DNA from: Tepidimonas alkaliphilus
GTDB taxonomy: Bacteria; Pseudomonadota; Gammaproteobacteria; Burkholderiales; Burkholderiaceae_C
Direction: 5' to 3'
DNA: 64,000 nucleotides
NCBI RefSeq assembly: GCF_007556595.1
Contig: NZ_VJNB01000002.1
Coordinates: 1 to 64,000 of the forward strand
Part shown: positions 1-19,386 of the stretch, one piece after another
Layout: each line of letters begins with the position of its first letter
Position numbering within the stretch: position 1 is the stretch's first letter
Made by a program: the position numbers and the translations under genes
The notes under the pieces: generated by a model
Database searches by the model: none
Told to the model about the DNA's origin: nothing
The model's input: only the letters and a program-made list of their open reading frames with translations

Positions 1-5
1 GGGGG

Positions 6-44
6 CAATGGGGGGGCTATGGGGTAGCGATAGCCTCCCCATTG
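6..44. repeat. 15-bp inverted repeat / hairpin
   Basis: CAATGGGGGGGCTAT (6-20) is complementary to ATAGCCTCCCCATTG (30-44) except at one position (14 against 36) that would be a G-T pair, around a 9-base loop. It lies just downstream of the small gene ending at 72. No T-run follows on the minus strand, so it is not a typical intrinsic terminator. It could be an RNA structure, a protein-binding site or a DNA-processing site. Confidence 0.6.
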
Positions 45-71
45 GGGGAGTGATGGGCAGGCCTGTGGCGG

Positions 72-284
72 CTATTCGAAGCTGCGTGGGTTCTGGATCA
101 CGACGATGTCTTGCTGCACAGTCTCGGCCTTCAGCGTCTCCACGACCACGCGCAAAAGGTGCGCCATCGCCGTCGCATCCCGCACAGGCAGGCGGCCAGC
201 CAGCGCGTCGCGATACAGCCGTCCGGCCTCGGTGCGGACGTCTGCCATCGTCTCCAGCTTCGGCCTTCGTGCACGTGGGGCCAT
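72..284 (-). CDS. Small hypothetical element protein (70 aa)
   Basis: A short basic-to-neutral protein that I do not recognise. It starts MAPRARRPKLETMADVRTEA and looks helical, with an alternating R/A/E/L pattern and no cysteines or membrane segment. The ATG at 284 has a good Shine-Dalgarno (GGAGG, about 8 bases upstream), which supports it as real. It follows the 90-residue gene at 314-586 after 29 bases, in the same direction as the other element genes, and is probably the same transcript. Function unknown; a role in packaging or a small phage accessory role is possible only from position. Confidence 0.55.
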   Translation of the reverse strand: MAPRARRPKLETMADVRTEAGRLYRDALAGRLPVRDATAMAHLLRVVVETLKAETVQQDIVVIQNPRSFE

Positions 285-313
285 CGGTCAATCCTCCCTT
301 TCGAATCAACGGC

Positions 314-586
314 TTACGCGCAATTCTGCGACCAGTTTGGAAGCCATTGCAGCGGCTCCGGCGGCTCCTGACCGCGCGCCAGCGCGACAACGCAACGCAG
401 CAGCTCGGCCTGCCAGCCGGTCACCGCGATCGTCGGCAACACCAGCTCCAGCAGGCCAGCGCGGCCATGATCGAGCAGCGCCAGCACGTCCGGCGCGGCC
501 TCAGCGGCCTTGCGCGGATCGCCCAGCTGCAGCGCCTCCAGGCGGCGCGCGGCCTCGAGAACGTGCGGCTGCAGGCGCTCAGGCAT
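314..586 (-). CDS. Small hypothetical element protein (90 aa)
   Basis: An unrecognised protein rich in leucine and alanine, predicted mostly helical, with a tryptophan/proline-rich tail (PLQWLPNWSQNCA). Its ATG at 586 overlaps the end of the upstream gene (stop at 579-581) by 8 bases, so translation is probably coupled. I see no clear ribosome-binding site of its own. The overlap and shared strand support a real gene in the element operon. No family assignment is possible from sequence alone. Confidence 0.5.
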   Translation of the reverse strand: MPERLQPHVLEAARRLEALQLGDPRKAAEAAPDVLALLDHGRAGLLELVLPTIAVTGWQAELLRCVVALARGQEPPEPLQWLPNWSQNCA

Positions 587-806
587 GCCGCGTCAACTGA
601 TCCAACGCTTCCTCAGTGCGCCGTCGCGCCTCATCGGCCAGAAAGCCCACGGCGGCAGTGGCGTTCAGCACCAGGCGCGGGTCGGGCCTGCATTCGCCGT
701 CAATGGCGTCCAGCATCAGGCACTCGACCAGCGTCGCAACTGCGCGCGCGGCGTTCAGTAGCTCCTCGACCTCTTCGACAACGATGGCTGCGCTTCGGCG
801 CTGCAT
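579..806 (-). CDS. Small hypothetical element protein (75 aa)
   Basis: Unrecognised, helical, acidic in its first half (VVEEVEELLNAARAVATLVE). The frame stays open farther upstream, but that part overlaps the preceding gene. The ATG at 806 begins 2 bases after the stop of that gene (809-811), the natural start in a coupled operon. The sequence ends with an amphipathic stretch (ADEARRRTEEALDQL). Nothing identifies its function. It lies just after a gene whose relatives often sit upstream of phage terminase genes, so a packaging-related role is conceivable. Confidence 0.5.
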   Translation of the reverse strand: MQRRSAAIVVEEVEELLNAARAVATLVECLMLDAIDGECRPDPRLVLNATAAVGFLADEARRRTEEALDQLTRHA

Positions 807-808
807 GA

Positions 809-1066
809 TCACGGCTCCCAGGTGACAACGATGTCCTTCGGCCCCTCGACGTGGTGGGGCAACAGTTTCTCTACCAGCCGCAGGTATGCGGCCACAATGC
901 GCGGGTCGTCGCTGGTGGCGCACTTCAGCAAATAGGAAGCGCCGCCGGCCTGACGCAGCGACTCCTCGATCATGGCCTTGATGTCGGCGGTCAGCTTGTT
1001 CGGCGTGCCCTTTGGGCGTCCCTTGCCAGCGTTCGGCGGTCGGCGTTTGGGTGGCTCGATTGTCAT
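809..1066 (-). CDS. Phage packaging-associated small protein (DUF5681-like)
   Basis: An 85-residue protein with an N-terminal basic stretch GKGRPKGTPNK (about residues 14-24) followed by a helical body. This RPKGTPNK-type start is familiar from small phage proteins usually encoded just upstream of the large terminase; some behave like small terminase subunits. The ATG at 1066 is preceded by AAAGGAGTCCGTG, giving a good ribosome-binding site (GGAG). The frame extends upstream to 1114, but that start has no such support. It follows the SSB gene after 44 bases. The family call rests on this motif only; a DNA-binding or terminase-related role is inferred. Confidence 0.55.
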   Translation of the reverse strand: MTIEPPKRRPPNAGKGRPKGTPNKLTADIKAMIEESLRQAGGASYLLKCATSDDPRIVAAYLRLVEKLLPHHVEGPKDIVVTWEP

Positions 1067-1110
1067 CACGGACTCCTTTGGGTGACAGTATCCGTCAGCA
1101 GTTTGGTGGA

Positions 1111-1554
1111 TCAAAGCGGAAGGCCGCCCAGGTCGTCGTCAGGCAACGGCTGCTGCGCGCGCAGCGCGGCGCTGTGGCGGCGCTGGCGGTCGGGGGTGCG
1201 CGTAGTATGCGTACCCCCGTCGCGGCGGTCGGTCGCGGCCTCACGGCGGCGGCGCACGGTGTAGGGCGTCAGGATGGCGTGCACCAGCAGCCGCAGCGAA
1301 GGCCTGACCTCGCCGGTCTTCGCGGTGAAGGTCGAGGCGCTCAGCTCACCCGCAGCGGCCAGCGCATCGCCGTCGCACAGCGCCAGCAGCTGCTGCACAA
1401 CGTCGGCGTCGAATGCAATCGCGCTCACCAGGTGCTGCCCGCCGTCGCCGTCCGTAACGGCCAGCCGCGCGGTGGCGTAGGCCCTGCCGGTCTTTGTCTC
1501 GCGGCGCACGGGGTCGCCGTGCAGGCGGCCTTGGATCAGCGCGTCAATCGCCAT
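1111..1554 (-). CDS. Single-stranded DNA-binding protein-like (OB fold)
   Basis: A 147-residue protein with an SSB/PriB-like OB-fold beginning: DALIQGRLHGDPVRRETKTG, then ATARLAVT and a second strand region ending VHAILTPY (about residue 98). A basic linker rich in R/T/Q follows, and an acidic-hydrophobic tail PDDDLGGLPL. Classical SSB ends in DDDIPF, the docking tail for replication and repair partners. Here the acidic run is kept but the terminal Pro-Phe is replaced. The start at 1554 has a strong Shine-Dalgarno and overlaps the previous gene by 11 bases. Together with the primase upstream it points to element-encoded DNA replication. Confidence 0.75.
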   Translation of the reverse strand: MAIDALIQGRLHGDPVRRETKTGRAYATARLAVTDGDGGQHLVSAIAFDADVVQQLLALCDGDALAAAGELSASTFTAKTGEVRPSLRLLVHAILTPYTVRRRREAATDRRDGGTHTTRTPDRQRRHSAALRAQQPLPDDDLGGLPL

Positions 1555-2248
1555 GACGCTCCTCCTGAAGGTCTTGGAATGTCTCGCACCGATGCGGCTG
1601 CGTCACCAGCTGCTGCGCCAGCGGCAGATGTAATGCCGCGCAGTGCCAGCGGGACGTGGTGCCAACGCGCAGGCTGCGGCACTCCAAGCACAGCCGCCGG
1701 TCGTCGCCCGTGCGGTCACGCCAGTGCAGCACGTCGCTCGCCAAATCGGCCTGCTGCGGGTCAAGCCCCAGCACCACGGCGCGGCGGTGGCGCTGCTCCA
1801 TCGCGGCCAGCTCCTTCGCGGTCGCAGGCGTCCAGTTGCGGCGCGCGGTCTCGAACGGGTGGGTCTGCGTCCCCGATCCGTGGGCGGCCAGCTGCTGGCG
1901 CTCGAACGCCTTGCACACGGCGGCATGCCCGGCAGGCGGCCAGCGGATCGCGAAGTGAGCGGCCAGCCCAGCCTCGACAGGCCGGGCGCACGTGCCAGCG
2001 CTGGTTCGGTGGGCGCACGCGGCGCAGGTGCGGTCGGCAGGCACCCCCGGATCGGGGGCCCCTCCGGTGAGGGCTGGCGCGGCGGAAGACCCTGCCAGCA
2101 ACACCAGCAGCTCGTCGCGGTGCTCGCGCAGCAGCGGCGTGAGTTCCCGCACGGCCTCGGCGGGGCCAGCCACGCGCAAGCGGCCAGCCTCGGCGGCCAG
2201 CGTGATGCCGGCAGCCGCGCAGCGGGTCAGCAGTTCGCGCGCGGTCAT
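1544..2248 (-). CDS. TubC N-terminal-domain-like protein with cysteine clusters
   Basis: A 234-residue protein. Residues 1-50 (ARELLTRCAAAGITL, then RLRVAGPAEAV and LLREHRDELLVLL) match the TubC N-terminal docking-domain pattern, also seen in proteins encoded next to phage and plasmid primases. Two cysteine-rich regions follow: CAACAH plus a downstream C-x3-C pair, and CLECRSL with a later CAALH and C near the end. They could bind zinc. The ATG at 2248 overlaps the primase stop as ATGA and has GGAGG seven bases upstream, which decides the start. It sits between primase and SSB, so a replication accessory role is inferred; no enzyme motif is seen. Confidence 0.65.
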   Translation of the reverse strand: MTARELLTRCAAAGITLAAEAGRLRVAGPAEAVRELTPLLREHRDELLVLLAGSSAAPALTGGAPDPGVPADRTCAACAHRTSAGTCARPVEAGLAAHFAIRWPPAGHAAVCKAFERQQLAAHGSGTQTHPFETARRNWTPATAKELAAMEQRHRRAVVLGLDPQQADLASDVLHWRDRTGDDRRLCLECRSLRVGTTSRWHCAALHLPLAQQLVTQPHRCETFQDLQEERHGD

Positions 2249-4776
2249 AGCCATTCCTCCAGCCGGTCGTCGCCCAGCGGCGCTGGATTCGCCACATCCA
2301 TCACCGGCGAAGGCGGCGAATCCGGCGAAAACCCTTGCGGCGCAGGGCTTGCAGCATGACGAACGGCTGGCGAAGAGTGGCGAACAGCCGGCGAAGGATC
2401 GGCATGGTGCGCTGGCGATTCGCCATCTTTCGCCGCGTCTTCGCCACGCGCGAAGCCTTGGGAATCAAGGCTTTTCGCCGCTTTCGCCGTTTTCGCTGCG
2501 AGTGGCGATAGGGAATCGCCGACCACGGCCACAGCGCCGCCCCGAACCTGCACCACGCCAGTCTCGACCAGCCGCGCCACGGCAGCGTCGCGCACCTCGG
2601 CGCTGCGCAGCGCGCGCGGGCCTTGCCGGATGATTTCGGTGCTGGTGGCGCGCGCGCCAGGCCGATCCAGCAGCCAGCGCAGTAGTGCCAGGGCATGGTC
2701 GGCGGCCTTGTCGCGCTGGCGGCGGCCCAGCGCGGCCTGCCAACACCCAAGGCTGTAGCTGGCCAGCGCCACACCGTTGTGCGCGTCTTCCATGCTCACC
2801 ACCGCGTGCCCACGGATGGCGGTCAGCACGCCAGCAACACGGGTTGCCTGCTCGGCGGCGCGCAGCGCGAAGGGGCGCACGTCCCACAGGTCGCCGCCGC
2901 GCGCAGCGCGGCGCTCGCAGGCCTCAAAGAAGTCCGCCAGAACCTGCCGCGCCTCATCGCTCAGGCGCAAGACGATGCGCTCGCCGTCCGGCTCTGGCAG
3001 CGCCAGCAAATCCTCGCAGCGCATCCACCAGCGCCGAACATGGGGATCGTCTTCGGGCCTCCAGATGAGATGGCGGCGCGGCTTCGGCATCGGCGGCCAG
3101 GCCAGCAGGAAGCGCGGCCACAATCCGATCTGCGCCAGCAGCGGATCGTGTAGCGCCTCAGCTACGGCAGCAGGTTGCACTGCCAGGTGGGCAGACAACC
3201 TCAACCCACTGCGCTCGAATCGCCCTTGGCCAGCGCGCAGCACAGACAGATGACCACGATCCCAGAGTCCGCACAGAGCGGCGGCGGTCTTGGCTCGGTG
3301 CTCGGCGCTGAAGCCGTGACCGGCCAGCACGGCGGCAGCTTCGGTGCTGAACACACCTTGACAGGCCACCCCTTCGGCGAAGGCGCGCCGCAGGCCCTCG
3401 ACGGTCATGTCGCTGCACAGTCGGTGCGGCGCGGTCGGCGGCTCTGGTGGTGGCTCGCCCTTTTTGCGGCTGCCCAGCGCGGCCTCGTGATCGCGCAAGG
3501 CCTGCTGGTAGGCTTCGTTTGCCTGCCGCTGCCAGCGGTAAACCGCTGCGCTGGTGATGCGATCAGCGGCGTCTTTTCCCGTCCCGCTGGCGGCCGCCGT
3601 CAGCGCAAACAACGACAGGGGACGGCGGTCGCCATCGATGGTTTCCACGTCCCAATGGGCCGAAGCCAGCAGCGCCGCCACGGACAACAGACCACTGCCG
3701 ACGATGGCGGCCTCGACCTGCCGTCCGCCCGCAATGGCGCGGCACACCCCGGCCAGCGGCCCCAGCGCCTCGACGGGGAAGATCGGCATGATGTCGCCGA
3801 TGTCCGGCTCCAGACGCTGGCGCGCGGCCTCGAGGATGGTCTCGCGATCCAGCGCTTCCCCATCGTCCGCCGCCGCCTCGGCGGCTTCGATCAGGCGGCG
3901 CACGGCCTGCGCCCCTTCGGCCCGGTGCAGGTCATTGAAATCCAGCGCCCCGGCTCGCCCATCCGACCAGCGCGGCACGGCCAGCCTCGCCCCCACGGCC
4001 TTCGCCGCCTCGACGGCTGCCGTCAGGCCGGGATTGCCTTCGGTTGCGGCGTCGTTGTCGGCAGCAACGACCAGCTCGGCATCCGGCAGCTTGTCGCGCA
4101 GCGCCCGCGCTACGGGCAGCAGGTTGCCCGACGACATCGCGGCGGCAGTCGCAAGCCCCGTGCTTTCGTAAATCGACGCGGCGGTTGCCACGCCTTCGCA
4201 GAGCACAACGACGCCATCGGGCCTGCCAACCGACCAGTAACAGGCCTGCGTCCTACCGCCAGGCAGGAAGCGCTTGGTGCCGCCCGGCCCGATGGTCTGC
4301 AAGCTCCACAGTTTGCCGGTCGTGTCGCGCAGCGGCACCAGCAGCAGGCCGTCCGATGAGACCCGCAGGCCGTGCGGCTGGATGCCTTTTTTGATCAGGT
4401 AGCCGTGATCGGCGGGAGCGGGCGCAGCAGACCGCCAGAGCTCGGCGGCACGGGCTGCAGCCTCTTCCTGTCGTTGCTGGCGCTCGGCTTCGGCCTGCCG
4501 TCGGGCCTGCTCGATCTGGCGCTGGCGCTCGCGGCGCTGCTGGGCCGTGACCGGCTGGTCATCGTCAACGAAGGCGACAGCATCTTCCCCGGTGCGCCAG
4601 TTGCGCACAAACGCACCCGCGCCGTCTGGGAAGACGTAGGCGCTGCCATCGCCTCGACCAGCAGCTCCAGCCCCGGCCACATCGCAGCGAGCCCACCGGC
4701 CCGGCTCGGCGTGACGCGGCGGCTCCAGGCCCACCTGCTGGCAGGCGCGCACCACGGCATCAACCCAGGTCAGCAT
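2245..4776 (-). CDS. Toprim primase / DUF3987 helicase-like replication protein
   Basis: An 843-residue multidomain replication protein. Residues 1-75 form a DnaG-like N-terminal region, followed by a charged coiled stretch of R/Q/E. A Toprim domain spans about 140-290, with catalytic glutamate in VVLCEGVATA (E194) and the AADND pair (D240, D242). From about 330 a DUF3987 domain follows, with a P-loop-like ASGTGKD at 397-402. The ATG at 4776 has GGAGG seven bases upstream. It overlaps the gene before it by 17 bases and the gene after it by 4. The last 80 or so codons carry an unusual repeat array that may be the replication origin. The inferred role is initiating element DNA synthesis. Confidence 0.88.
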   Translation of the reverse strand: MLTWVDAVVRACQQVGLEPPRHAEPGRWARCDVAGAGAAGRGDGSAYVFPDGAGAFVRNWRTGEDAVAFVDDDQPVTAQQRRERQRQIEQARRQAEAERQQRQEEAAARAAELWRSAAPAPADHGYLIKKGIQPHGLRVSSDGLLLVPLRDTTGKLWSLQTIGPGGTKRFLPGGRTQACYWSVGRPDGVVVLCEGVATAASIYESTGLATAAAMSSGNLLPVARALRDKLPDAELVVAADNDAATEGNPGLTAAVEAAKAVGARLAVPRWSDGRAGALDFNDLHRAEGAQAVRRLIEAAEAAADDGEALDRETILEAARQRLEPDIGDIMPIFPVEALGPLAGVCRAIAGGRQVEAAIVGSGLLSVAALLASAHWDVETIDGDRRPLSLFALTAAASGTGKDAADRITSAAVYRWQRQANEAYQQALRDHEAALGSRKKGEPPPEPPTAPHRLCSDMTVEGLRRAFAEGVACQGVFSTEAAAVLAGHGFSAEHRAKTAAALCGLWDRGHLSVLRAGQGRFERSGLRLSAHLAVQPAAVAEALHDPLLAQIGLWPRFLLAWPPMPKPRRHLIWRPEDDPHVRRWWMRCEDLLALPEPDGERIVLRLSDEARQVLADFFEACERRAARGGDLWDVRPFALRAAEQATRVAGVLTAIRGHAVVSMEDAHNGVALASYSLGCWQAALGRRQRDKAADHALALLRWLLDRPGARATSTEIIRQGPRALRSAEVRDAAVARLVETGVVQVRGGAVAVVGDSLSPLAAKTAKAAKSLDSQGFARGEDAAKDGESPAHHADPSPAVRHSSPAVRHAASPAPQGFSPDSPPSPVMDVANPAPLGDDRLEEWL
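2288..2520. repeat. Inverted iteron-like array of GGCGAA/TTCGCC, candidate replication origin
   Basis: Plus-strand GGCGAA occurs at 2306, 2315 and 2324 (9-base spacing) and at 2369, 2379 and 2390 (10 and 11). The complement TTCGCC occurs at 2419, 2429 and 2440 (10 and 11) and at 2474 and 2483, then TTCGCT at 2492 (9 and 9). An outlying TTCGCC lies at 2288. The two halves are oppositely oriented around about 2407 and show the same spacing classes. Regular short iterons next to or inside a primase gene are a known layout for origins of phage satellites and small replicons. Origin function is inferred. Confidence 0.6.
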
Positions 4777-4999
4777 GGTGCACCTCCCGCGTCAAGCCAA
4801 GGAATCGCTCCAAGGCGCTGATGCGGCCATGCAGCACACCGATCTCGAACCAGCGCGCCGCCTCCGGGTCGTCTGGCAGGTCCAGGTCTTGCGCGCCATC
4901 GGCCATTGCGTTACCATCGCGAATGCCGATCGCACCCCCAACCCGATTCGGCAACCCCACCTCGGTGGGGTTTTCTTTTTGGATTTGCACTGCGCTCAT
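4760..4999 (-). CDS. Small hypothetical protein coupled to primase
   Basis: A 79-residue unrecognised protein. The start ATG at 4999 overlaps the stop of the AlpA-like gene as ATGA, and its 3' end overlaps the primase start by 17 bases, so it sits inside a translationally coupled set. The C-terminal half (LPDDPEAARWFEIGVLHGRI and on to EVHH) looks like a compact helical domain. The N-terminal part includes QKENPTEVGLPN, whose DNA forms a perfect terminator hairpin on the opposite strand. A shorter product from the ATG at 4906 is possible. No function can be assigned. Confidence 0.55.
   Translation of the reverse strand: MSAVQIQKENPTEVGLPNRVGGAIGIRDGNAMADGAQDLDLPDDPEAARWFEIGVLHGRISALERFLGLTREVHHADLG
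4953..4980 (+). terminator. Intrinsic terminator on the plus strand, inside a minus-strand gene
   Basis: AACCCCAC (4953-4960), loop CTCG, GTGGGGTT (4965-4972), then TTCTTTTT. The 8-bp stem is perfect, the tetraloop is compact and a T-rich tail follows on the plus strand only. It lies within the coding region of the 79-residue gene on the other strand, so it would stop antisense transcription coming from the primase side. Confidence 0.6.
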
Positions 5000-5211
5000 T
5001 TGCTGCCCTCCCGAATTAACCGCAGCACATCGGCGGTTCGCCAGCCAAGGCGGCCAGAAATGCGCACGGGCTGAAGGGGGCCGCGCCCCAGGGATGCCCA
5101 AACGCGCAAGGTTTGCGGTTTTCGGCAAAGAATTTCGGCAGCTTCGTGCGTGGTGAGGATCGGACGCACGCGCGGGTCAATTGCAATTTCGTTTGCTTCG
5201 CTCAGCTTCAT
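4996..5211 (-). CDS. AlpA/excisionase-like helix-turn-helix regulator
   Basis: A 71-residue protein with a winged-helix excisionase/AlpA (MerR superfamily) pattern: LTTHEAAEILCRKPQTLRVW (helix-turn-helix, about residues 19-38), then GRGPLQPVRISGRLGWRTADV with the wing and the second helix. In P4-like elements AlpA-type proteins switch on integrase and excision genes. The ATG at 5211 has GGAG seven bases upstream; a longer TTG-initiated form (5226) is less likely. A 7-bp inverted repeat (5220-5239) lies right before the gene and could be its operator. First gene of the coupled replication operon. Confidence 0.8.
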   Translation of the reverse strand: MKLSEANEIAIDPRVRPILTTHEAAEILCRKPQTLRVWASLGRGPLQPVRISGRLGWRTADVLRLIREGSK

Positions 5212-5219
5212 TTTGCGCT

Positions 5220-5239
5220 CCGTCAATTGGCGTTGACGG
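5220..5239. promoter_or_regulatory. Inverted repeat upstream of AlpA-like gene
   Basis: CCGTCAA (5220-5226), spacer TTGGCG, TTGACGG (5233-5239) is a perfect 7-bp inverted repeat. It touches the ribosome-binding region of the AlpA-like gene starting at 5211. It could be an operator for autoregulation or an mRNA hairpin that limits translation. Confidence 0.45.
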
Positions 5240-5304
5240 AGTGCAGTTTGTCGCTGATGCGCGCGTTTGTCCGCTAGATTCGCGCAGATTTTTCGGGCTC
5301 GAAT

Positions 5305-6099
5305 CTACCGCAAGTGGTTGCGGACATCGTCTTCGCTGACGTCTTCGCCGGTCAGCACGGAGGCGCAGGCGGCCACGACGCGGTTCAGTCGCGGCAGGCG
5401 CAGGATGTCGTCGCGCGCATCGTCGCGATCCACGGCCCAGCGCAGCGCGCGCAGGAATTCGGCCTTGCCGTTCGCCTTGCGGCTTGCCACGGCGGCAGCT
5501 GCCATGTCGCGCTCGGCGTAGCGCTTGGGCGTCAGGTCTATCTCGCGCAGGCGCTCGGTCAGCTCGCGCAAGGCGGCAGCGCCGAATTCGAATGTTGACC
5601 GGGCATCGCGCGGAATGCAATCCAGCGCCTCGGCAGCCGCGAGTTTGCGCGCCATTTGCTGCGCCAGCCGCTCGATATCGGATCGCAGCGCGGCAGCTGT
5701 AGCCCATTGGCTACGCGCATACCCGTAATCGAATGCAGCCCAGCGCACGGCGTCAAACAGCGTCACCAGCAGGTATTCATCGCGGGCGCTGCTGGCGGCC
5801 AATTCGTAGGCCTCGCGCATTCGGATATCGGCGGCCAGGGCCTCGACGTAGCGCAATTCCTCGCGCAGGCGCGCGGCCCATCGGCGGGCGCGGGCCGCCT
5901 CATTTTGATCCTCGCAGTTTGCGGCCTTGCGCTGCTCATCGGCCAGCAGCCGAAACAGCCCCGGCGCAGCCTCGTCGCCTTCGGCAAGCCAGCGCAGCCA
6001 ATCGGCCACGGCCTTCGGCACCCAGCGCGCCACGCGCAGGCGCTGCGGGCTGCTTGCGCAGACGTCCGCGCCCTCGAAACAGCCTCCGCCAGCATCCAT
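5305..6099 (-). CDS. Hypothetical element protein (264 aa)
   Basis: I do not recognise this protein. It is rich in alanine, arginine and glutamate and almost entirely helical. Residues about 35-110 look coiled-coil-like (DEQRKAANCEDQNEAARARR). A short hydrophobic/aromatic patch follows (TLFDAVRWAAFDYGYARSQW), then more charged helices. No catalytic motif or membrane segment is evident. The ATG at 6099 has a G-run (GGGGGGG) as possible ribosome-binding site. It lies between the antitoxin gene (47 bases upstream) and the AlpA-like gene (93 bases downstream), in a position where satellites carry regulators or interference genes. Function unknown. Confidence 0.6.
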   Translation of the reverse strand: MDAGGGCFEGADVCASSPQRLRVARWVPKAVADWLRWLAEGDEAAPGLFRLLADEQRKAANCEDQNEAARARRWAARLREELRYVEALAADIRMREAYELAASSARDEYLLVTLFDAVRWAAFDYGYARSQWATAAALRSDIERLAQQMARKLAAAEALDCIPRDARSTFEFGAAALRELTERLREIDLTPKRYAERDMAAAAVASRKANGKAEFLRALRWAVDRDDARDDILRLPRLNRVVAACASVLTGEDVSEDDVRNHLR

Positions 6100-6146
6100 T
6101 TCGCCCCCCCCTATTCGCCGGAATTACGCCTCCGGCGCGGCGTCGT

Positions 6147-6434
6147 TTATGAGGTCTCGACCCGCACGCGCAGCCGCGCGCCCACGGCTTCGGCGTAGCG
6201 CTGCAGGGTGCGCAGCGTCGGGGCGGTGCGGCCCGATTCCAGCCGCGCAATGGCGCTTTGCGTGGTGCCCATGCGCTGCGCCAGCTCGGCTTGCGACAGT
6301 CCGGCGCGGGCGCGCGCCTCGATCAGCAGCCGCGCGGCCTCATACTGCGGGGCCAGTTCGTCAAAGGCGCGCTGCACGTCCGGATCGCACAGCAGGCGCT
6401 CTTCCAGGGCGTCAGGTTTGCGGGTCTTGCTCAT
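6147..6434 (-). CDS. HigA-like antitoxin (XRE helix-turn-helix)
   Basis: A 95-residue protein with a C-terminal Cro/C1-type helix-turn-helix: ARAGLSQAELAQRMGTTQSA, then IARLESGRTAPTLRTLQRYA (about residues 42-82). This matches HigA-type antitoxins, which bind the toxin and repress their own operon. The start ATG at 6434 lies inside the toxin gene (23-base overlap), the toxin-first order usual for HigBA. The frame is open farther upstream, but that part overlaps the toxin and reads as non-coding (cysteine-rich). The likely operator is the inverted repeat at 6759-6776. Confidence 0.87.
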   Translation of the reverse strand: MSKTRKPDALEERLLCDPDVQRAFDELAPQYEAARLLIEARARAGLSQAELAQRMGTTQSAIARLESGRTAPTLRTLQRYAEAVGARLRVRVETS

Positions 6435-6753
6435 CGTCCACTCTCCGCAGGCGTTGCAGGGCCGTTTCGATGGCGCGGCGCGGGGTCTTGTCGGTTTTCT
6501 TGACGAAGACGTGCAGCACCAGCAGCCGCTGCCCGCTGCGCGCCACGTAAAGCGCGCGCGCAATGCCATCGCGTCCGCGCAGGCGCATTTCCCACAGCTT
6601 GCCGTGCACCGGGCGCACGTAGGGCATGCCAACCTGCTGCGGGCCGAACTCCAACAGCAGGCGGCGCACGTGCAGGAAGTGCGCGCGCACGTCGGCGGGC
6701 AGCGCCAGCAGCTCCGCCTCAGCCTCCGGCAGCAGCTCCATCGTCCAGGCCAT
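6412..6753 (-). CDS. HigB/RelE-family toxin (Gp49-like)
   Basis: A 113-residue protein of the phage-derived Gp49/HigB family, ribosome-dependent mRNA interferases. Diagnostic stretches are MELLPEAEAELLALPADVRA at the start, then KLWEMRLRGRDGIARALYVA (about residues 52-71) and LLVLHVFVKKTDKTPRRAIE (about 77-96), with the conserved basic and aromatic residues of the RelE fold. The ATG at 6753 begins 27 bases after the integrase stop. The gene overlaps its antitoxin. It probably stabilises the element in the host or acts in phage defence; this is inference from family and location. Confidence 0.87.
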   Translation of the reverse strand: MAWTMELLPEAEAELLALPADVRAHFLHVRRLLLEFGPQQVGMPYVRPVHGKLWEMRLRGRDGIARALYVARSGQRLLVLHVFVKKTDKTPRRAIETALQRLRRVDDEQDPQT

Positions 6754-6758
6754 GATGG

Positions 6759-6776
6759 TATCGCGCTTTCGCTATA
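6759..6776. promoter_or_regulatory. Toxin-antitoxin promoter/operator candidate
   Basis: TATCGCG (6759-6765), CTTT, CGCTATA (6770-6776) forms an inverted repeat with one mismatch. Read on the minus strand it contains TATAGC, a plausible -10, just before the toxin ATG at 6753. It lies between the integrase stop and the toxin start, where a HigA-type repressor would bind. Confidence 0.45.
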
Positions 6777-6779
6777 TTT

Positions 6780-8078
6780 TCACACCACCACGCGCAGCCG
6801 CTGGGCGGCATCCTCGGCGCTGGGCTGTTCGATCCCGGCCTGCTCCAGAATCCAGCTCTCGATCTTGGCGTGCCATTTCGCCAGCAAGTCCAGAGGCCTC
6901 ACGACGTAGTGCCGCTCCACAGTGCCGCTGGCCCGGTGCCCCATGAGCTGCGCCACTACGCCTACCGGCACTTCGACCCACTCGCTCAGGCTCTTGAAAC
7001 TGCGCCGCAGGCCGTGCAAGGTGACGGGCGGCACACCGGCCAGCCTGCAAACCCGGGCGGCGGCGTGATTCGGCGGCGCAATCGGGCCGTCGGTCTTGCC
7101 GCTCATGAAGACGTAGGGACCACGGCGGGGGAGACCCGCCAGCAGCATGGCCACGTAGGGCGTCAACGGGATCGTGCGCTCGCCCTCGACCTTGTCGCGG
7201 ATGGTCAGGCTCTTCCATTGGAATTCCACGTCCGACCAGCCCAGCCGCAGCAGCTCGCCGGGGCGCGCACCGGTCAGCAGCAGGGCCTGCAAGTAGGCGC
7301 TCACCACCGGGTCTTGCGTGCGCACGGCCTCAAACCATGGGCGCAGCTGCTCGCGCATCAGGGCGTCGCGCTTGGCCTTCGGGCTGCCCAGCGCCTCGCG
7401 GGCGCGCTTGCTCTTGGCGGGGTTGTCCTCCAGCAGGGCATGGCGGTAGTCCGGATGCGCGCGGCACCAGTTCAGGAACACCCCCAGCAGGCGCAGACAA
7501 AGCCGCGCCACGGTCGGGCGCTCTTTGGCGTGCTTGGCGGCCCAGAGTTCCACCGCTTCGGCGTCCAGTTGCGCCAGCGGGCGGTTCAGCAGCTCATACA
7601 GCGGCCCAGCGGCTAGGGTGCCCTTGCCACGGCGCACAGGGCCGCCACCGGCACGAGCGAGTTTGACGTGGTCGGCGTAGTGGCGCTCGCCCCAAACGCG
7701 GCGGCGTTCCTCGCAGTAGGCTTGCCACACGTCCAAGGCGCAGGCTTGGGCGGCCTGCTGACGTGCGCGCTCGGCTTCGCGCTGCTGCTGCTGGCGCTTG
7801 GCTTCCTCGCGCGGGTCAATGCCTTTGTCCACCAGCGCGGCCAGCTCGCGCGCTCGGGCGCGGGCGGCCTCGATCGTCCAGTGCGCAGGGTCGCCGATGG
7901 TGACGCGCAGCGTGCGGCGCTGCAGCTTCGATTCGAACACGTAGGCCTTTGCTCCGGCAGGCGTTGCGCGCAGCGCCAGCGTCGGCACCTCCGAGTCGCG
8001 CAGGAAGGCCTGAGCCTGCCCAGGCGGGCAGGTGAAAGCCGCCACGCGGCCAGCCGTCAATCGCACCCGTGTAGCCAT
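6780..8078 (-). CDS. int: P4-type tyrosine integrase
   Basis: A tyrosine recombinase of the P4/DUF4102 type, 432 residues from the ATG at 8078. The N-terminal arm-binding domain is visible (RLTAGRVAAFTCP, then KAYVFESKLQRRTLRVTIGD). The core-binding domain follows, then the catalytic domain with LLTGARPGELLRL (R272), LHGLRRSF (H355 and R358), MGHRASGTVERHY (H381, nucleophile Y391). All expected catalytic residues are present, so the enzyme looks active. The frame also offers starts at 8090 and 8129; 8078 fits the family's usual beginning (MATRVRLTAGRVAAF). It ends 27 bases before the toxin gene and reads away from the tRNA attachment site at 8254-8302. Confidence 0.93.
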   Translation of the reverse strand: MATRVRLTAGRVAAFTCPPGQAQAFLRDSEVPTLALRATPAGAKAYVFESKLQRRTLRVTIGDPAHWTIEAARARARELAALVDKGIDPREEAKRQQQQREAERARQQAAQACALDVWQAYCEERRRVWGERHYADHVKLARAGGGPVRRGKGTLAAGPLYELLNRPLAQLDAEAVELWAAKHAKERPTVARLCLRLLGVFLNWCRAHPDYRHALLEDNPAKSKRAREALGSPKAKRDALMREQLRPWFEAVRTQDPVVSAYLQALLLTGARPGELLRLGWSDVEFQWKSLTIRDKVEGERTIPLTPYVAMLLAGLPRRGPYVFMSGKTDGPIAPPNHAAARVCRLAGVPPVTLHGLRRSFKSLSEWVEVPVGVVAQLMGHRASGTVERHYVVRPLDLLAKWHAKIESWILEQAGIEQPSAEDAAQRLRVVV

Positions 8079-8136
8079 ATCGCACCCCATCCGCGAATCA
8101 GTCCGCAGGTCTTGCCATGTAGCCACCATGTAGCCA
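8067..8136. repeat. 11-bp direct repeats beside integrase, arm-site candidates
   Basis: CCATGTAGCCA occurs twice in perfect tandem (8115-8125, 8126-8136), and once more with one mismatch, CCGTGTAGCCA, at 8067-8077. They span the integrase start region, 118-187 bases from the attachment core. Short repeats in this position are typical arm-type sites for integrase or excisionase binding. That function is inferred. Confidence 0.5.
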
Positions 8137-8251
8137 GTTTTGCTGAAAAAGGCGGCAAACCGATCAACGCTTGCTGCAGTGCAGCATCTAGCAAGCCTTT
8201 GTTTTATCTGGATTGTATCAACAGTGAAGAATACAGGGGAACAGGGGTTGA

Positions 8252-8302
<51 letters not shown>

Positions 8303-8318
8303 AGATAATCAACGACTT

Positions 8319-8343
8319 AGCCCGCCGGTAAGCGGGCTTTTTT
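8319..8343 (+). terminator. Intrinsic terminator of the tRNA transcript
   Basis: AGCCCGC, loop CGGTAA, GCGGGCT followed by TTTTT, 17 bases after the CCA end. This is the native chromosomal terminator of the tRNA gene and marks chromosomal DNA to the right of the element. Confidence 0.85.
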
Positions 8344-8497
8344 GTGCTCAGTCGCGGCGGGGTCAGCACATCGACACTCGACGCTCTTGTGCGGGTATTG
8401 CCGCTCAGGGTGGCGCAGCGTTTTTTACTGGCGCTCGCTACGGTAGCCACCGGATCAACCGCCTGCGACAGCGCGCAGCGACGGCACCCGATCCACC
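8344..8497. other. Intergenic stretch between terminator and MFS gene
   Basis: I see no convincing gene or site here. A minus-strand open frame (8259-8528) runs across the tRNA fragment and the terminator and is spurious. The MFS gene ends at 8498. Confidence 0.5.
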
Positions 8498-9685
8498 TCA
8501 AGCCTCTTGCACTCCAGGCACCCACCACCGCAGCAAGGCTGCCGCGGCCAACGCGCAGCCGGCGGAAAAGCCGAACGCCGCCTGCACACCGATCTGCTCA
8601 TAGAGCCAACCGAAGGCAGCGGAAGCCGGCAGCAGCATCGCGCCGGCGGTCATGTTGAACCAGCCAAAGGCAGTGCCGCGCTGCTCGGGCGTGGCCAGAT
8701 CAGCCACCAGGGCCTTTTCAACGCCCTCGGTGGCGGCAAGGAACACGCCGTAGAAGGCAAACCACAACACCAGCCAAGCGCCCGTCGGCGAGGCCAGCCC
8801 CAGCACCAGGTAGAACAGCGCGTAGGCCCCGTAGCCGGCCAGCAGCAGCGCGCGGCGGCCGACGCGGTCTGACAGGCCCGACAGCGGCGCCGACAGCAGC
8901 ATCGCAATCGCCGACACCGCCGCCCACAGCAGCGGCACCTGCGCCTGCGGCACGCCGAGTTCGCTGGCGCGCAGCAGCAGGAACATGTTGGACGAATTGC
9001 CGAGCGTGAACAGCGCCACCACCGCGAGAAAGCGCCGGTAGCCCGGCGGCAGGCTCGCCCAGCCCGCGAGCGTCGGCCGCGGCGCCGATGACGCCACCGG
9101 CGCCGCAGCCGCCTGGGCTTCCGGCAGCGCCAGCGTCAACAGCACGCACAGCACGCCCGGCACGAGCGTCCACAGCAGCACGTCGCGCAGCGGCATGCCG
9201 GCGGCCAGCAGCCCGGCGGCCAGCAGCGGCCCCAGCACCGCGCCGGCGTTGTCCATGGCGCGGTGCACGCCGAAGGCCAGCCCGCGCCGATCCGGGCCGA
9301 CGCTGGCGGCCAGCAGCGCGTCGCGCGGTGAGGTGCGCAGCCCCTTGCCGACGCGGTCGGCGAAGCGGATCGCCAGCAGCGCCGGCCAGCTGGTCACCAG
9401 CGCAATCAGCGGTCGGCCCAACGCCGCCAGCGCATAGCCGATAACGATCCACGGCTTGCTGCGGCGCGTGCGGTCCACCGCCACGCCGGAGACGAGCTTG
9501 AGCAGCGCCGCAGTGGCCTCGGCGATACCCTCGATCAGGCCAAGCGCCTTCGGCCCGGCCATCAGCACCGAGGTGAGGAACAGCGGCACCAGCGGGTACA
9601 CCAGCTCCGAAGCGGTGTCGTTGACGAGGCTGATAAACCCGATCAGCCACACGGTGCGCGGCAGCGCGCGTAAAGCGTCAAGCAT
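8498..9685 (-). CDS. MFS transporter
   Basis: A 395-residue major facilitator with about 12 hydrophobic segments. It has the signature between helices 2 and 3 (SGVAVDRTRRSKPWIVIGYA), a second typical motif RFADRVGKGLRTSPRDALLA near residue 110, and a central charged loop near 195-215. The ATG at 9685 has GGAGG six bases upstream and overlaps the permease gene before it by 8 bases; a GTG directly before it (9688) is the alternative. The substrate is not evident. The shared operon with a Fur-family regulator and an ACR3-like permease suggests metal, metalloid or metallophore efflux. This is inference only. Confidence 0.8.
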   Translation of the reverse strand: MLDALRALPRTVWLIGFISLVNDTASELVYPLVPLFLTSVLMAGPKALGLIEGIAEATAALLKLVSGVAVDRTRRSKPWIVIGYALAALGRPLIALVTSWPALLAIRFADRVGKGLRTSPRDALLAASVGPDRRGLAFGVHRAMDNAGAVLGPLLAAGLLAAGMPLRDVLLWTLVPGVLCVLLTLALPEAQAAAAPVASSAPRPTLAGWASLPPGYRRFLAVVALFTLGNSSNMFLLLRASELGVPQAQVPLLWAAVSAIAMLLSAPLSGLSDRVGRRALLLAGYGAYALFYLVLGLASPTGAWLVLWFAFYGVFLAATEGVEKALVADLATPEQRGTAFGWFNMTAGAMLLPASAAFGWLYEQIGVQAAFGFSAGCALAAAALLRWWVPGVQEA

Positions 9686-10640
9686 CACCGTCCTCCCGCC
9701 ACAGGCGCGGCGCCAGCGCCACGTAGGCCACCATGCCCAGCAGCTCCACCAGCGACTGCGCCACGATCACCACCGCCACCGCCTCCCAGCCCGGCGGCAG
9801 GGCCAGCGCCAGCGGCAGCACGACGAACGAGTTGCGCGTGCCAAGGCTGAAGGCGAGCGTGCGCCCCTGCGCCGGCGGCAGACCATGCCAGCGCGCCAAC
9901 CCCCAAGCCAACGCGAGCGCCCCCGCCAGATAAAGCGCAAACAGTGGCAGCACCTGCGTGACTGCGTCCCACGCCTGCCCTACAGCCGCCACATGCGCAT
10001 AGGCGATCAGCCCCACCACCAGCGTCAGCAGCGGCACCGGCCACCAAGCCAACCGCTCGCGCACGCGCTGCCAGCGCGGCGCGCGCTTGGCGCGCCACTC
10101 CAGCACCGCGGCCAGCGCCAGCGGCGCGAGCACCAGCGCCACCGCCGGCAGCAGATCCGCCCACGACCAACCGGCCAGCGCCTGCGCGTCGGCCATCACC
10201 GCGAGGTAGGCCGGCAGCAGCGCCAGCTGCACGACAAGGTTCAGTGGCGTGACAGCGATCGCGCGCACGGCGTCGCCGCGACCCAGCTGCGTGAAGGTGA
10301 TGAACCAGTCCGTGCACGGCACCAGCAGCACCAGCAGCACCCCGAGCCGCTGCGCGCCGTGCAGGTCGAACGCCGCCACCAGCGCCCAGGCGAGGAGCGG
10401 CGCCGCGACGAAGTTGCCCAGCAGCACCGCGCGCGCGAAGCGCGTGTCGCGCCACGCGCGGCGCACGTGCAGCAGCGGGATCTGCGCGAACGTGGCCAGC
10501 AGCAGCAGCGCCAACGCGGGCCACAACGCGCTTTGCGCCACCGCGGCCAGCTGCGGTGCGCGCTCAGCGGCCAGCCAACCCAGCGCGATCGCCAGCCCAT
10601 ACAGGACAACCTGGTGGCGCTCCAAAGCCAGCCGACTCAC
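9678..10640 (-). CDS. ACR3/bile acid:sodium symporter-family permease
   Basis: A 320-residue membrane protein with about ten hydrophobic segments. The core VLLVLLVPCTDWFITFTQLG (about residues 100-119) holds the PCTDW cysteine motif typical of ACR3-type arsenite permeases; AFSLGTRNSFVVLPLALALP matches the second conserved helix of the wider bile-acid/sodium symporter superfamily. No ATG fits. A GTG at 10640 overlaps the stop of the Fur-family gene (GTGA) and gives a natural start. Arsenite or another oxyanion is a possible cargo, but the pairing with a Fur-type repressor and a TonB receptor is not the usual ars layout. Confidence 0.75.
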   Translation of the reverse strand: MSRLALERHQVVLYGLAIALGWLAAERAPQLAAVAQSALWPALALLLLATFAQIPLLHVRRAWRDTRFARAVLLGNFVAAPLLAWALVAAFDLHGAQRLGVLLVLLVPCTDWFITFTQLGRGDAVRAIAVTPLNLVVQLALLPAYLAVMADAQALAGWSWADLLPAVALVLAPLALAAVLEWRAKRAPRWQRVRERLAWWPVPLLTLVVGLIAYAHVAAVGQAWDAVTQVLPLFALYLAGALALAWGLARWHGLPPAQGRTLAFSLGTRNSFVVLPLALALPPGWEAVAVVIVAQSLVELLGMVAYVALAPRLWREDGDA

Positions 10641-11038
10641 GGCAACCGGGCTCCCGCACAATCCGCGCAGCGGCCATACAGCACCACGTCGTGCGCCTCC
10701 ACCCGAAAGCCCGCCGGCGCCCAATCTTGCAAAGACCCCGGGCAATAGTCCAACTCAAACACGCGGCCGCAGCCGCGACATCGAAAGTGATGGCGGTGGC
10801 CGTGCGCCGCCCACTGGAAGCGCGCCGGCTCGCCAGGCAGCTCGACCCGCTGCACCATCCCCTGGTCCAGCAAGCGGCGCAACAAACGGTACACCGTCGC
10901 CAGGCCCAAGCCGGGCACTTCCGCGCGCGCTGCGGCCAGCAACTCGGCGGGCAGCAAGGGATGGGGGCTGACGCGCAACACCCGCAGCACCGCCCGCCGC
11001 TGGCGGGTCTCGCGCTCGGCAACTGGGAGATCCGACAT
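10637..11038 (-). CDS. Fur-family metalloregulator (Fur/Zur-like)
   Basis: A 133-residue regulator. The winged-helix half is clear (RAVLRVLRVSPHPLLPAELL, then LGLATVYRLLRRLLDQGMVQ, about residues 15-65). The metal-binding half has HGHRHHFRCRGCGRVFELDY and a second pair CADC near the C-terminus; the two CxxC pairs form the structural zinc site and the histidines the sensing site. The ATG at 11038 gives the normal family length; the open frame extends far upstream without support. It heads an operon with the permease and MFS genes and faces the TonB receptor, so it probably controls both. Metal specificity cannot be read off. Confidence 0.85.
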   Translation of the reverse strand: MSDLPVAERETRQRRAVLRVLRVSPHPLLPAELLAAARAEVPGLGLATVYRLLRRLLDQGMVQRVELPGEPARFQWAAHGHRHHFRCRGCGRVFELDYCPGSLQDWAPAGFRVEAHDVVLYGRCADCAGARLP

Positions 11039-11123
11039 GACATGAAGCAACCACAACGCAGCCAGGCCCAAGCATAGCGGGTGGCTTGCTTCGGCGGTGT
11101 CAGCTCGGTGAACCTCTCTTATC

Positions 11124-11145
11124 GAGAATGATTTCTCATGATCAT
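11124..11145. promoter_or_regulatory. Candidate Fur-family operator between divergent genes
   Basis: GAGAATGATTTCTC (11124-11137) is an inverted repeat (GAGAA/TTCTC) followed by palindromic ATGATCAT (11138-11145), in an AT-rich patch between the regulator and the TonB receptor. It resembles half-sites of Fur boxes (GATAATGAT) but only partly fits the full consensus. Confidence 0.5.
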
Positions 11146-11207
11146 CTAAAATCATGTCCCGATGATTGGATACCCGAGCGGGTAAAGCGATTTGGAGGCT
11201 GCACGCT

Positions 11208-13304: not shown

Positions 13305-13352
13305 GGCCGTGCAAGCGGTCGGGCAGGACGGCTTTCGAACGTTGCCGGCCCT

Positions 13353-14642
13353 TCACGCCAAATACTGAAACAGCGACAAACGCTGAATCTGCGCATACGA
13401 CGACAGCCCAGCCTGATAGGCCAGCTGCTGCGTCTGAAAACGCGAAATGGCTTCCACCATGTCGAGGTCGGTGAGTTCGGACTGCTGGGCGATGTGGTAG
13501 TCCTCGCGCGCCTTCAGCGCCGCCTGCACCGCATCGGCGCGGTTGAGCCAGTCGCCCAGCTGGCCGCGTGCCGTCAGCAGCCGATCCAGTCGCGCGCCCA
13601 GCTGGCGGTGCACCACCGCCAGCTCTTGCGTCAAATCGTCGCCCGACTCGGTGCGCAACGCGCCGATGGCCCGATCCAGCGTCTCCCAGATATCGGTATC
13701 GACGGTGGGGGTCACGGTGAAGGTATCGCCGTTGGCCGGTGTGCCGCGCAGGCGCACCGTGAGCCCTTCAAAGGTCAACTCGGTGATGTCGCCGCTGGTG
13801 TTGACCGCAACGGGGCTGACGGGGCCAAACGGCGCGCCGGTCTTGTCGGTGCCGCTGACGCTCCACGTGCCGCCGCTGTAGCTTAAGGTGTATAAGCCAA
13901 GATCATTGGTGCTGTCATCGAGCGTGAACACCTGAGTGGTGTTCAGCGCCGTCAGGCTGTTGACCTGCACCTCCACCCCGCGCGCGCTGCCGCTGTTGCC
14001 GCTGCCCGCCGCGACAATGGCCGCGGCGGTCTCGCGGATGCGCCCGGCAAACACAGGGTAGCCGTCGATGACCATCGGCAGCGCGGTGTCGGTCGGGGCG
14101 GACTGGCCGCGCAGCATTTGCTTTTGCACCTCGCGCCCGTCCGGGCCGTAGGTGGTCGCCGCCGGCGCGGTGATGAGCTCGCGAAACGGCCGCCCCAGCG
14201 CGTTGGTGACGCCTTGTCCCATGAACAGCGGGCGTCCATAGGTATCCTGCGTGTTGGCCAAGGCCACGATGCGCTCGCGCAAACCCTCCAGCTCATCGGC
14301 GATCGTGCGGCGATCCGCGGGGGTCAACGCTCCGTTGCCACCTTGCACGATCAATTCTTTGACCCGGTGGTAAAGATCGTTGATGGTGCCCAAGGTGCTT
14401 TCCGCAAGCTCGATGTTGCGCCGCGCCGCCTCCAGGGCGCGCTGGTCGGATTGGATGCGCTGCATGCGCGCCTGCTCGCGTTCGGCCAGCGCGGCGGCAG
14501 CTGGATCGTCGCTGATGCGGCGCACGCGCTTGCCGGAGGAGAGCTGATCCTGCAGCTCCGCCAGCTGCGCACCGCGCTGCTGCAGGCGGTCGATGGTGCG
14601 GTCGTAGCTGTAGGCGGTGGCCACGCGATACACGGTGCTCAT
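13353..14642 (-). CDS. flgL: Flagellar hook-filament junction protein FlgL (HAP3)
   Basis: A 429-residue protein with the flagellin-like N-terminus (YDRTIDRLQQRGAQLAELQD, then LSSGKRVRRISDDPAAAALA) and C-terminus (VEAISRFQTQQLAYQAGLSS, then LSLFQYLA). These coiled ends are what flagellins and FlgL use for assembly. The middle (about residues 190-320) is a variable surface domain. FlgL joins the hook to the filament with FlgK, and FlgN is its export chaperone. The ATG at 14642 has AAGGAG just upstream. It is the last gene of the flgB-flgL run and converges with the TonB receptor gene 48 bases away. Confidence 0.95.
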   Translation of the reverse strand: MSTVYRVATAYSYDRTIDRLQQRGAQLAELQDQLSSGKRVRRISDDPAAAALAEREQARMQRIQSDQRALEAARRNIELAESTLGTINDLYHRVKELIVQGGNGALTPADRRTIADELEGLRERIVALANTQDTYGRPLFMGQGVTNALGRPFRELITAPAATTYGPDGREVQKQMLRGQSAPTDTALPMVIDGYPVFAGRIRETAAAIVAAGSGNSGSARGVEVQVNSLTALNTTQVFTLDDSTNDLGLYTLSYSGGTWSVSGTDKTGAPFGPVSPVAVNTSGDITELTFEGLTVRLRGTPANGDTFTVTPTVDTDIWETLDRAIGALRTESGDDLTQELAVVHRQLGARLDRLLTARGQLGDWLNRADAVQAALKAREDYHIAQQSELTDLDMVEAISRFQTQQLAYQAGLSSYAQIQRLSLFQYLA

Positions 14643-14663
14643 GGCGCGCTCCTTTCAAGCCCG

Positions 14664-16613: not shown

Positions 16614-16631
16614 GCGGGGCTCCTTGCCTGA

Positions 16632-17516: not shown

Positions 17517-17517
17517 G

Positions 17518-18636: not shown

Positions 18637-18662
18637 CGCGCATCCCCTCGTGAACCGATTGT

Positions 18663-18677
18663 GGAAAAACTTTAGAA
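18663..18677 (-). repeat. 15-base motif at flgH/flgI junction
   Basis: Plus-strand GGAAAAACTTTAGAA, identical to 22278-22292. On the coding strand it reads TTCTAAAGTTTTTCC, carries the flgH stop codon and resembles a sigma-28 -35 box (TAAAGTTT). No matching -10 box is seen at the usual spacing. Confidence 0.55.
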
Positions 18678-19361: not shown

Positions 19362-19386
19362 GGCACGGCTCCGGCAGGGGTGGATA

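What the first reader, a model, noticed from the sequence alone, without database searches (positions are those of the whole stretch)
2288..2520. Possible replication origin: inverted iteron array hidden in the 3' end of the primase gene
Seen: plus-strand GGCGAA at 2306, 2315, 2324 (9-base steps) and 2369, 2379, 2390 (10 and 11); TTCGCC at 2419, 2429, 2440 (10 and 11) and 2474, 2483, with TTCGCT at 2492 (9-base steps). The two halves point in opposite directions around about 2407 and reuse the same spacings. The encoded peptides differ between blocks (AKTAKAAK-type at one end, SPDSPPSP-type at the other), so the constraint looks to be on DNA, not protein. Known: P4-like and other satellites replicate from iteron origins bound by their primase/initiator. 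Inference: this is the element's ori, overlapping the coding region of its own initiator.
Basis: partly seen in the sequence, partly recalled or inferred. Interest (0 to 1): 0.78.

Follow-up and report, generated by a model that had tools for sequence, protein, structure and literature searches.

The report
Satellite-like element's replication origin inside primase gene
A small mobile DNA element in a Tepidimonas bacterium very probably carries its own replication start site, a mirror-like array of a repeated six-base word, written through the end of the gene for the protein that appears to read it, and one amino acid of that protein goes with the word that its relatives use.

Summary
The array is most likely the replication origin of an integrated, satellite-like element, bound by the winged-helix-like C-terminus of its own DUF3987 primase-helicase. 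(1) In two distinct relatives the window's 12 hexamers are unchanged: 0 of 72 columns vary, 37 of 152 elsewhere. (2) Several homologues end at the winged helix, yet have inverted arrays of other hexamers just downstream, in the next gene or between genes; 400 kb of arbitrary control DNA had none. (3) Centre spacings cluster by about 10.5 bp. (4) One helix residue goes with iteron base 4: R/K/N with G, Q/T with T, in 67 of 68 called helix matches of 74. (5) The tested origin of the E. coli satellite EcCICFT073 has a similar symmetric layout with another hexamer and another initiator family. It is a new variant of the SaPI/PICI-type origin, but lacks the AT-rich stretch described for that type. 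Binding and replication were not tested.

The parts
2245..4776 (-). Toprim_3 + DUF3987 primase-helicase, 843 aa; candidate initiator
   Evidence: Pfam DUF3987 E 4e-53, Toprim_3 E 1e-12; PHROG DNA primase/helicase
2539..2700 (-). C-terminal winged-helix-like segment (about residues 693-746) with the motif IIRQGPRALR; proposed iteron-binding domain. Fold not modelled
   Evidence: conserved across homologues; covariation with the iteron
2626..2628 (-). codon of R717, two residues before the conserved GP; proposed contact to iteron base 4 (G)
   Evidence: R/K/N with G4 and Q/T with T4 in 67 of 68 called helix matches
2288..2520 (.). compound inverted iteron array, proposed origin
2288..2293 (-). 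outermost copy, opposite to its neighbours (TTCGCC on +)
2306..2329 (+). outer triplet GGCGAA x3, 9-bp steps
2358..2395 (+). inner set: degenerate GACGAA 2358, then GGCGAA 2369, 2379, 2390 (11, 10, 11-bp steps)
   Evidence: the fourth copy is intact in L005 and L006
2396..2418 (.). centre of symmetry; innermost copies are 29 bp apart start to start; about 65% GC, no AT-rich stretch
2419..2445 (-). inner triplet TTCGCC x3 (2419, 2429, 2440; 10- and 11-bp steps); overlaps GGCGATTCGCC at 2414-2424
2453..2473 (.). perfect 8-bp hairpin AAGCCTTG-N5-CAAGGCTT between inner and outer triplets
   Evidence: z -3.4; arms kept in L005 and L006; the spacer on the other side has z +1.7 and such hairpins are not general
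2474..2497 (-). outer triplet TTCGCC 2474, 2483 and TTCGCT 2492, 9-bp steps
1544..2254 (-). 236-aa ORF after the primase gene, overlapping it by 10 bp (weak TubC_N)
1111..1554 (-). weak single-strand-binding-protein match (below Pfam cut-off); same order primase, one ORF, SSB as in EcCICFT073
4999..5214 (-). small HTH_17 protein, perhaps AlpA/Xis-like (below Pfam cut-off)
6780..8129 (-). tyrosine integrase of the element
   Evidence: Pfam Phage_integrase and Arm-DNA-bind_3

Best explanation
The array is the replication origin of an integrative, phage-satellite-like element (integrase, HTH_17 protein, primase-helicase, SSB-like protein). Shown by sequence: a conserved, DNA-level, two-sided array of a 6-bp iteron, placed next to the winged-helix-like end of the DUF3987 primase-helicase as in many relatives, with iteron base 4 tracking one residue of that helix. 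Inferred: several copies of the primase-helicase bind the iterons through their C-terminal winged helices, with the two convergent halves setting up two oppositely facing assemblies; the ATPase parts then melt and unwind the DNA in both directions after excision while the Toprim part primes. The last part of the primase reading frame runs through the origin, so the protein tail is a by-product of the iterons.
For: Exact array, unique in the genome. Hexamers defined from the window alone: 0 of 72 columns vary among three Tepidimonas sequences against 37 of 152 others, Fisher 1.4e-7; L005 and L006 differ at 0 of 72 and 20 of 152, Fisher 6e-4. L009 and L010 (48-49% identical) stop at the winged helix and the array lies in the next ORF. 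Inverted arrays in 33 of 132 primase loci (20 strict; sets overlap, one is Tepidimonas) against 0 in 400 kb of arbitrary DNA of the same genomes, 0 of 30 loci chosen for GGCGAA triplets and 0 of 200 shuffles. Centre distances of 24 arrays, 13 distinct word-distance pairs, cluster at 10.5 bp, R 0.73, 7 of 20,000 random sets. Residue-base covariation: 67 of 68 called, of 74 helix matches in 73 loci; 50 of 50 with a stricter caller; six independent pairs on supported branches, all concordant, sign test median p 0.031, range 0.031-0.063; 15 calls on places not seen before, none discordant. EcCICFT073, whose ori deletion lowered plasmid maintenance, has a similar layout.
Against: No binding or replication experiment. 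No AT-rich region: GC is 57-70% across the array, unlike PICI origins as described and the EcCICFT073 region (28-57%). Iteron copies alone could be an operator or a partition site. L162 breaks the residue rule (K with TGCTA); L012, L163, L201 and L203 have the helix but no array that I could see, and L012 and L026 are called by the caller at its lowest score only. Most of the 40 further primase loci (35 of 40) gave no array in the detectors. Mirror symmetry alone is not beyond chance once triplets are assumed. Most covariation cases share ancestry. The structure was not predicted.
Confidence: 0.83

Rival explanations
1. Operator array: the primase-helicase or another regulator binds the hexamers to control the downstream genes.
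For: The array lies upstream of the next gene; initiators often also repress (general knowledge). Repeated sites fit cooperative repression.
Against: It lies at the 3' end of the gene, not at the start of the operon; two-sided convergent sets with helical spacing fit an origin better; the EcCICFT073 counterpart lies in a tested ori.
Confidence: 0.08
2. Partition or incompatibility site (centromere-like).
For: Short repeats with regular steps can be such sites (general knowledge; no call).
Against: None of the 13 window ORFs given to Pfam matched a ParA or ParB family (nine, four; other ORFs were not scanned, and the element is cut by the contig end); the covarying protein is the primase-helicase.
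Confidence: 0.04
3. Selection on the protein: a repetitive tail of the primase with its own function.
For: The repeats are inside an intact ORF.
Against: The tail is missing from homologues whose array is in another gene; the hexamer falls in three phases; with hexamers defined in the window, second and third codon positions vary outside hexamers (17 of 51, 14 of 50) but not inside (0 of 24 each).
Confidence: 0.01
4. A nucleic-acid structure (cruciform, transcription terminator or priming hairpin) is the functional unit.
For: The region folds better than shuffles, z -4.8; one spacer hairpin is perfect, z -3.4, and kept in relatives.
Against: Any inverted repeat array folds well; spacer hairpins are not general (mean z -0.53, SE 0.39, 13 of 15 spacers, L005 left out as a near copy); the hexamer changes between elements while spacings stay.
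Confidence: 0.03

Closest known systems
PICI/SaPI-type replication origin (tested example EcCICFT073, E. coli CFT073)
   Same: Iterons just after the pri-rep gene in two convergent sets. EcCICFT073: TCTACC x11, outer steps 9, inner steps 11 and 9, centre 31, then a hypothetical gene and an SSB gene. SaPI Rep reads its origin with the C-terminal domain (passages of PMC7581432).
   Different: The window initiator is Toprim + DUF3987, that of EcCICFT073 D5_N/DUF5906/Pox_D5. The window array lies inside the coding region, has no AT-rich stretch, and its outer-inner distance is 34-45 bp instead of 68. EcCICFT073 was found by the relaxed test, not the strict one.
SCCmec Cch2 and its putative origin
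   Same: Helicase whose isolated C-terminal domain binds direct repeats just downstream of its gene (passages of PMC7581432).
   Different: Only three iterons (AAGTG), intergenic, with a separate polymerase-type priming enzyme (passages).
Lambda-type origin inside the initiator gene O
   Same: Iterons inside the coding region of the initiator (recalled; no call).
   Different: Lambda has 18-bp iterons in one direction plus an AT-rich region, and O is not a helicase (recalled).
P4 origin (ori1 and crr with alpha protein)
   Same: Satellite primase-helicase initiator with short repeated sites (recalled; P4 alpha and its ori are mentioned in PMC6092414, passages).
   Different: P4 uses two separate regions and decamer sites (recalled); no second array was found in the window.
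PICMI satellites (Vibrionaceae)
   Same: The search model for their primase uses DUF3987 and DUF5906, with int and alpA (passages of PMC10803314).
   Different: The word iteron does not occur in that paper's main text; PICMI origins were not compared here.

Membership tests
PICI/SaPI-type replication origin | Iterons immediately 3' of, or at the end of, the replication initiator gene | tested here: met
   First exact copy 56 bp after the end of the winged-helix match; a similar place in relatives
PICI/SaPI-type replication origin | Two sets of iterons | tested here: met
   Convergent sets around 2407
PICI/SaPI-type replication origin | AT-rich region flanked by the iteron sets | tested here: not met
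   GC 57-70% throughout; element mean 69%. So it is not filed as a plain member. L089, L090 and L096 do have AT-rich stretches beside their arrays, judged by eye
PICI/SaPI-type replication origin | Initiator reads the iterons with its C-terminal domain | tested here: inconclusive
   Strong covariation but no binding data
PICI/SaPI-type replication origin | Supports replication with its initiator | not testable with these tools
   needs a replicon assay
Phage satellite (PICI, PICMI or P4-like element) | Integrase, AlpA-like protein and primase together | tested here: inconclusive
   Integrase and primase clear; the HTH_17 protein is below the Pfam cut-off
Phage satellite (PICI, PICMI or P4-like element) | Induction and packaging by a helper phage | not testable with these tools
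   needs an experiment; the left end of the element is also cut by the contig end (the window starts at contig base 1)
P4-type origin | Two separate cis regions (ori1, crr) bound by an alpha-type initiator (feature recalled) | tested here: inconclusive
   one array only in the 64 kb and a DUF3987 initiator, but the element's left end is missing and P4 itself was not compared

The most novel reading that the evidence does not exclude
DUF3987 primase-helicases of proteobacterial integrative elements are self-recognising initiators with a readable address code. Their C-terminal winged helix reads convergent arrays of a short iteron (mostly TGC[G/T]-type cores) whose spacing is kept while the letters change, and one residue before a conserved Gly-Pro sets base 4 (Arg/Lys/Asn for G, Gln/Thr for T). 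The address has switched repeatedly in evolution, which would define compatibility groups of these elements and let origins be located and matched to initiators from sequence alone.
Probability: 0.65. Interest if true: 0.72.

Novelty: new variant of a known kind. Interest (0 to 1): 0.64.

Why it matters
If true, the origin of a DUF3987-type element can be found from sequence, a large family of unknown function (DUF3987) is tied to origin recognition, and repetitive peptides in hypothetical proteins (for example TVATVATVAVAT in L018, or EQVEQVEQV in L022) are explained as DNA-level iterons read in whatever frame covers them. The residue-base rule makes initiator-origin specificity directly testable.

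Tried and rejected
Spacer hairpins as a general part of the origin: rejected; the left hairpin of the Tepidimonas arrays and one spacer of L167 stand out, the others do not, and the window's second spacer has z +1.7. Mirror symmetry as separate evidence: rejected; a simulation with random gaps reaches the observed mirroring in 282, 739 and 170 of 1500 cases. GGCGAA triplets as a marker across the family: not useful, 60 of 299 genomes have one and none of the 30 loci fetched is inverted. Forty longer loci around further primase hits: 4 of 40 strict and 5 of 40 strict or relaxed; many of these are Toprim hits without the DUF3987 winged helix. Viral contigs gave few relatives (2, 5); arrays in L139 and L138 and L137. 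Solved structures: no match at E up to 1. No structure model was obtained, so the winged-helix fold rests on the sequence pattern only. In the conservation test the line for hexamers present in all three sequences is invariant by construction; the valid version defines hexamers in the window alone and gives the same table (0 of 72, 37 of 152), and with hexamers present in two of three it is 3 of 90 against 34 of 134. The spacing test used 24 TGC-type arrays that I chose from those found by then; arrays found later were not added.

Literature: DUF3987 with iteron gave 0 papers; DUF3987 with primase and replication gave 7 (listing). I found no report of this residue-base rule in these searches of an open-licence library; the SaPIbov1 origin study was not held. 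Of papers I saw: passages and one section of PMC6092414, passages of PMC7145576, PMC10803314 and PMC7581432; the rest as listings.

Rows dropped before the count: copies of the window (L001-L004, L007, L124, L142), repeats of the same place or element (L008, L067, L074, L106, L133, L134, L192-L200, L204, L205, L222), and loci in which the winged-helix profile found nothing (for example L129, L165, L022, L030, L081, L089, L090, L202, L217, L221). L220 counts twice (two helix matches), so 74 matches are 73 loci. The table was typed by hand after I had seen residue and array together, and leaves out L154 and L112 (helix with an insertion); searches are automated.

Full report
What is there. The window starts at base 1 of contig 12 of a 2.46-Mb genome. 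Its genus is Tepidimonas by inference: a genome of the same genus (G024) holds the stretch found in T. ignava. At 1-8.2 kb lies an integrated element with a tyrosine integrase (6780-8129) and a Toprim_3 + DUF3987 primase-helicase (2245-4776, minus strand). Triplets of GGCGAA with 3-6 bp between them occur three times in the genome, all in this array, and the strict inverted-triplet detector finds nothing else in the 64 kb.

The constraint is on DNA. Three distinct Tepidimonas sequences (window, L005, L006; L008 holds the same stretch as L005) keep the array. With hexamers defined in the window alone, 0 of 72 hexamer columns vary among the three against 37 of 152 others (Fisher 1.4e-7), and L005 and L006 differ at 0 of 72 and 20 of 152 (Fisher 6e-4). 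With hexamers present in at least two of the three, 3 of 90 columns vary against 34 of 134. Over the array the hexamer falls in all three phases. The two halves, one reversed, share 72 of 115, 79 of 117 and 78 of 117 aligned positions.

The array moves between genes but not in place. Homologues L009 and L010 (48-49% identical) end right after a segment with the pattern GPxxLR or a close variant, and their arrays lie in the next ORF; in L011 the array is inside the primase frame, as in the window. So the last 90 or so residues of the window protein are reading frame run through the array.

Other elements use other words. Inverted arrays near the 3' end of the primase-helicase gene use TGCGAA, TGCGGA, TGCGAC, TGCTAA, TGCTAC, TGCTAT, TGCTGT and TGCTCA, and some use GTCCCC, TGTCGA or TGTGTA. 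By the detectors 20 of 132 loci are positive strictly and 33 of 132 strictly or relaxed, with overlapping sets and one Tepidimonas locus among them; 0 in 400 kb (one 20-kb stretch at a fixed place from each of 20 genomes), 0 of 200 shuffles, 0 of 30 loci chosen for GGCGAA triplets. A number of loci missed by the detectors show arrays of five-letter cores on reading.

Geometry. Simple arrays have steps of mostly 9 (often with 6 at the outer ends) and a centre distance of mostly 31 or 41-42. For 24 arrays that I chose, thirteen distinct word-distance pairs cluster by 10.5 bp, R 0.73, reached by 7 of 20,000 random sets; letting the period vary from 8 to 13, 4 of 2000. Compound arrays, as in the window, add outer sets with mostly 9-bp steps to inner ones with mostly 10-11-bp steps (window, L005, L006, L011, L167, L010, L129, L081). 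Their outer-inner distances (33-36, 43-45, 54-55) were listed, not tested. Mirror symmetry itself is not beyond chance given such triplets.

Who reads it. In the winged-helix-like segment the residue two before the conserved Gly-Pro tracks iteron base 4. I saw this and tabled it by hand (44 of 45 fit), then automated it. One search called 39 of 54 matches, none discordant. One search, on loci fetched afterwards, called 21 of 34 matches, none discordant; 15 of the 21 are from places not seen before (two of them twins). One search, with repeats removed and a simpler caller, called 68 of 74 matches, 67 concordant (R/K/N with G, Q/T with T) and one not (L162). Two of the 67 (L012, L026) have the lowest passing score and no array that I or could see; with a score difference of 5 or more it is 50 of 50. 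The same caller fires in 93 of 1000 random 300-bp pieces. On a tree of the upstream domain there are six independent pairs on supported branches, all concordant (sign test median p 0.031, range 0.031-0.063), and eleven changes on the best tree. An earlier, smaller tree had three such pairs, too few to test. This is the main reason to name the primase-helicase as the binder. The fold of the segment was not modelled.

Known function nearby. The PICI EcCICFT073 has a tested replicon: the rep mutant plasmid gave no colonies and deleting ori significantly reduced them (section on replication read; other passages). I read its DNA: after the primase gene lie eleven TCTACC words with outer steps of 9, inner steps of 11 and 9, a centre distance of 31 and equal 68-bp outer-inner distances on both sides; the relaxed test finds them, the strict one does not. 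A hypothetical gene and an SSB gene follow. In the window the primase gene is likewise followed by one ORF and a weak SSB match. The initiator there is of the D5 family, so a similar layout is shared between different initiator families. SaPI Rep and Cch2 read their origins with the C-terminal domain (passages of PMC7581432).

Limits. The window array has no AT-rich stretch, a stated feature of PICI origins, so it is not filed as a plain member of that kind. No experiment was possible. Loci L012, L163, L201 and L203 show the helix but no visible array. The contig end cuts the element, so its full gene content is unknown.

Verdict. What I did not find in print is this family (Toprim + DUF3987) with such an origin, the placement of iterons in coding sequence of changing genes, and the residue-base rule (searches).

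Noticed in passing
window 8255-8303: Sequence that reads like the 3' part of a tRNA gene next to the integrase gene, a likely attachment site (by eye); ARAGORN reports no whole tRNA in 1-20000.
   Followed up: partly
window 6147-6753, minus strand: Gp49-like (DUF891) protein followed by an HTH_3 protein: looks like a HigB/HigA-type toxin-antitoxin pair inside the element (the type name is recalled).
   Followed up: partly
L006 9467-16357: Downstream of the related primase lie a protein of 1509 aa with an Eco57I-type methylase domain and a helicase, cargo that looks like a defence system.
   Followed up: partly
L089, L090, L096, about 3.3-3.7 kb in each: Arrays of TGTCGA or TGTGTA words between genes, next to AT-rich stretches, after a primase-type gene with another type of C-terminus.
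   Followed up: partly
L022 3337-3493: TTGAGCA iterons at the end of a gene next to the primase, encoding EQVEQVEQV repeats, in the opposite orientation to most arrays.
   Followed up: no
L119 downstream of the winged helix: Two sets of TGTCGCA copies in one orientation about 100 bp apart; partner sets not located.
   Followed up: no
L162 downstream of the winged helix: Only exception to the residue-base rule: K before GP but a TGCTA array.
   Followed up: no
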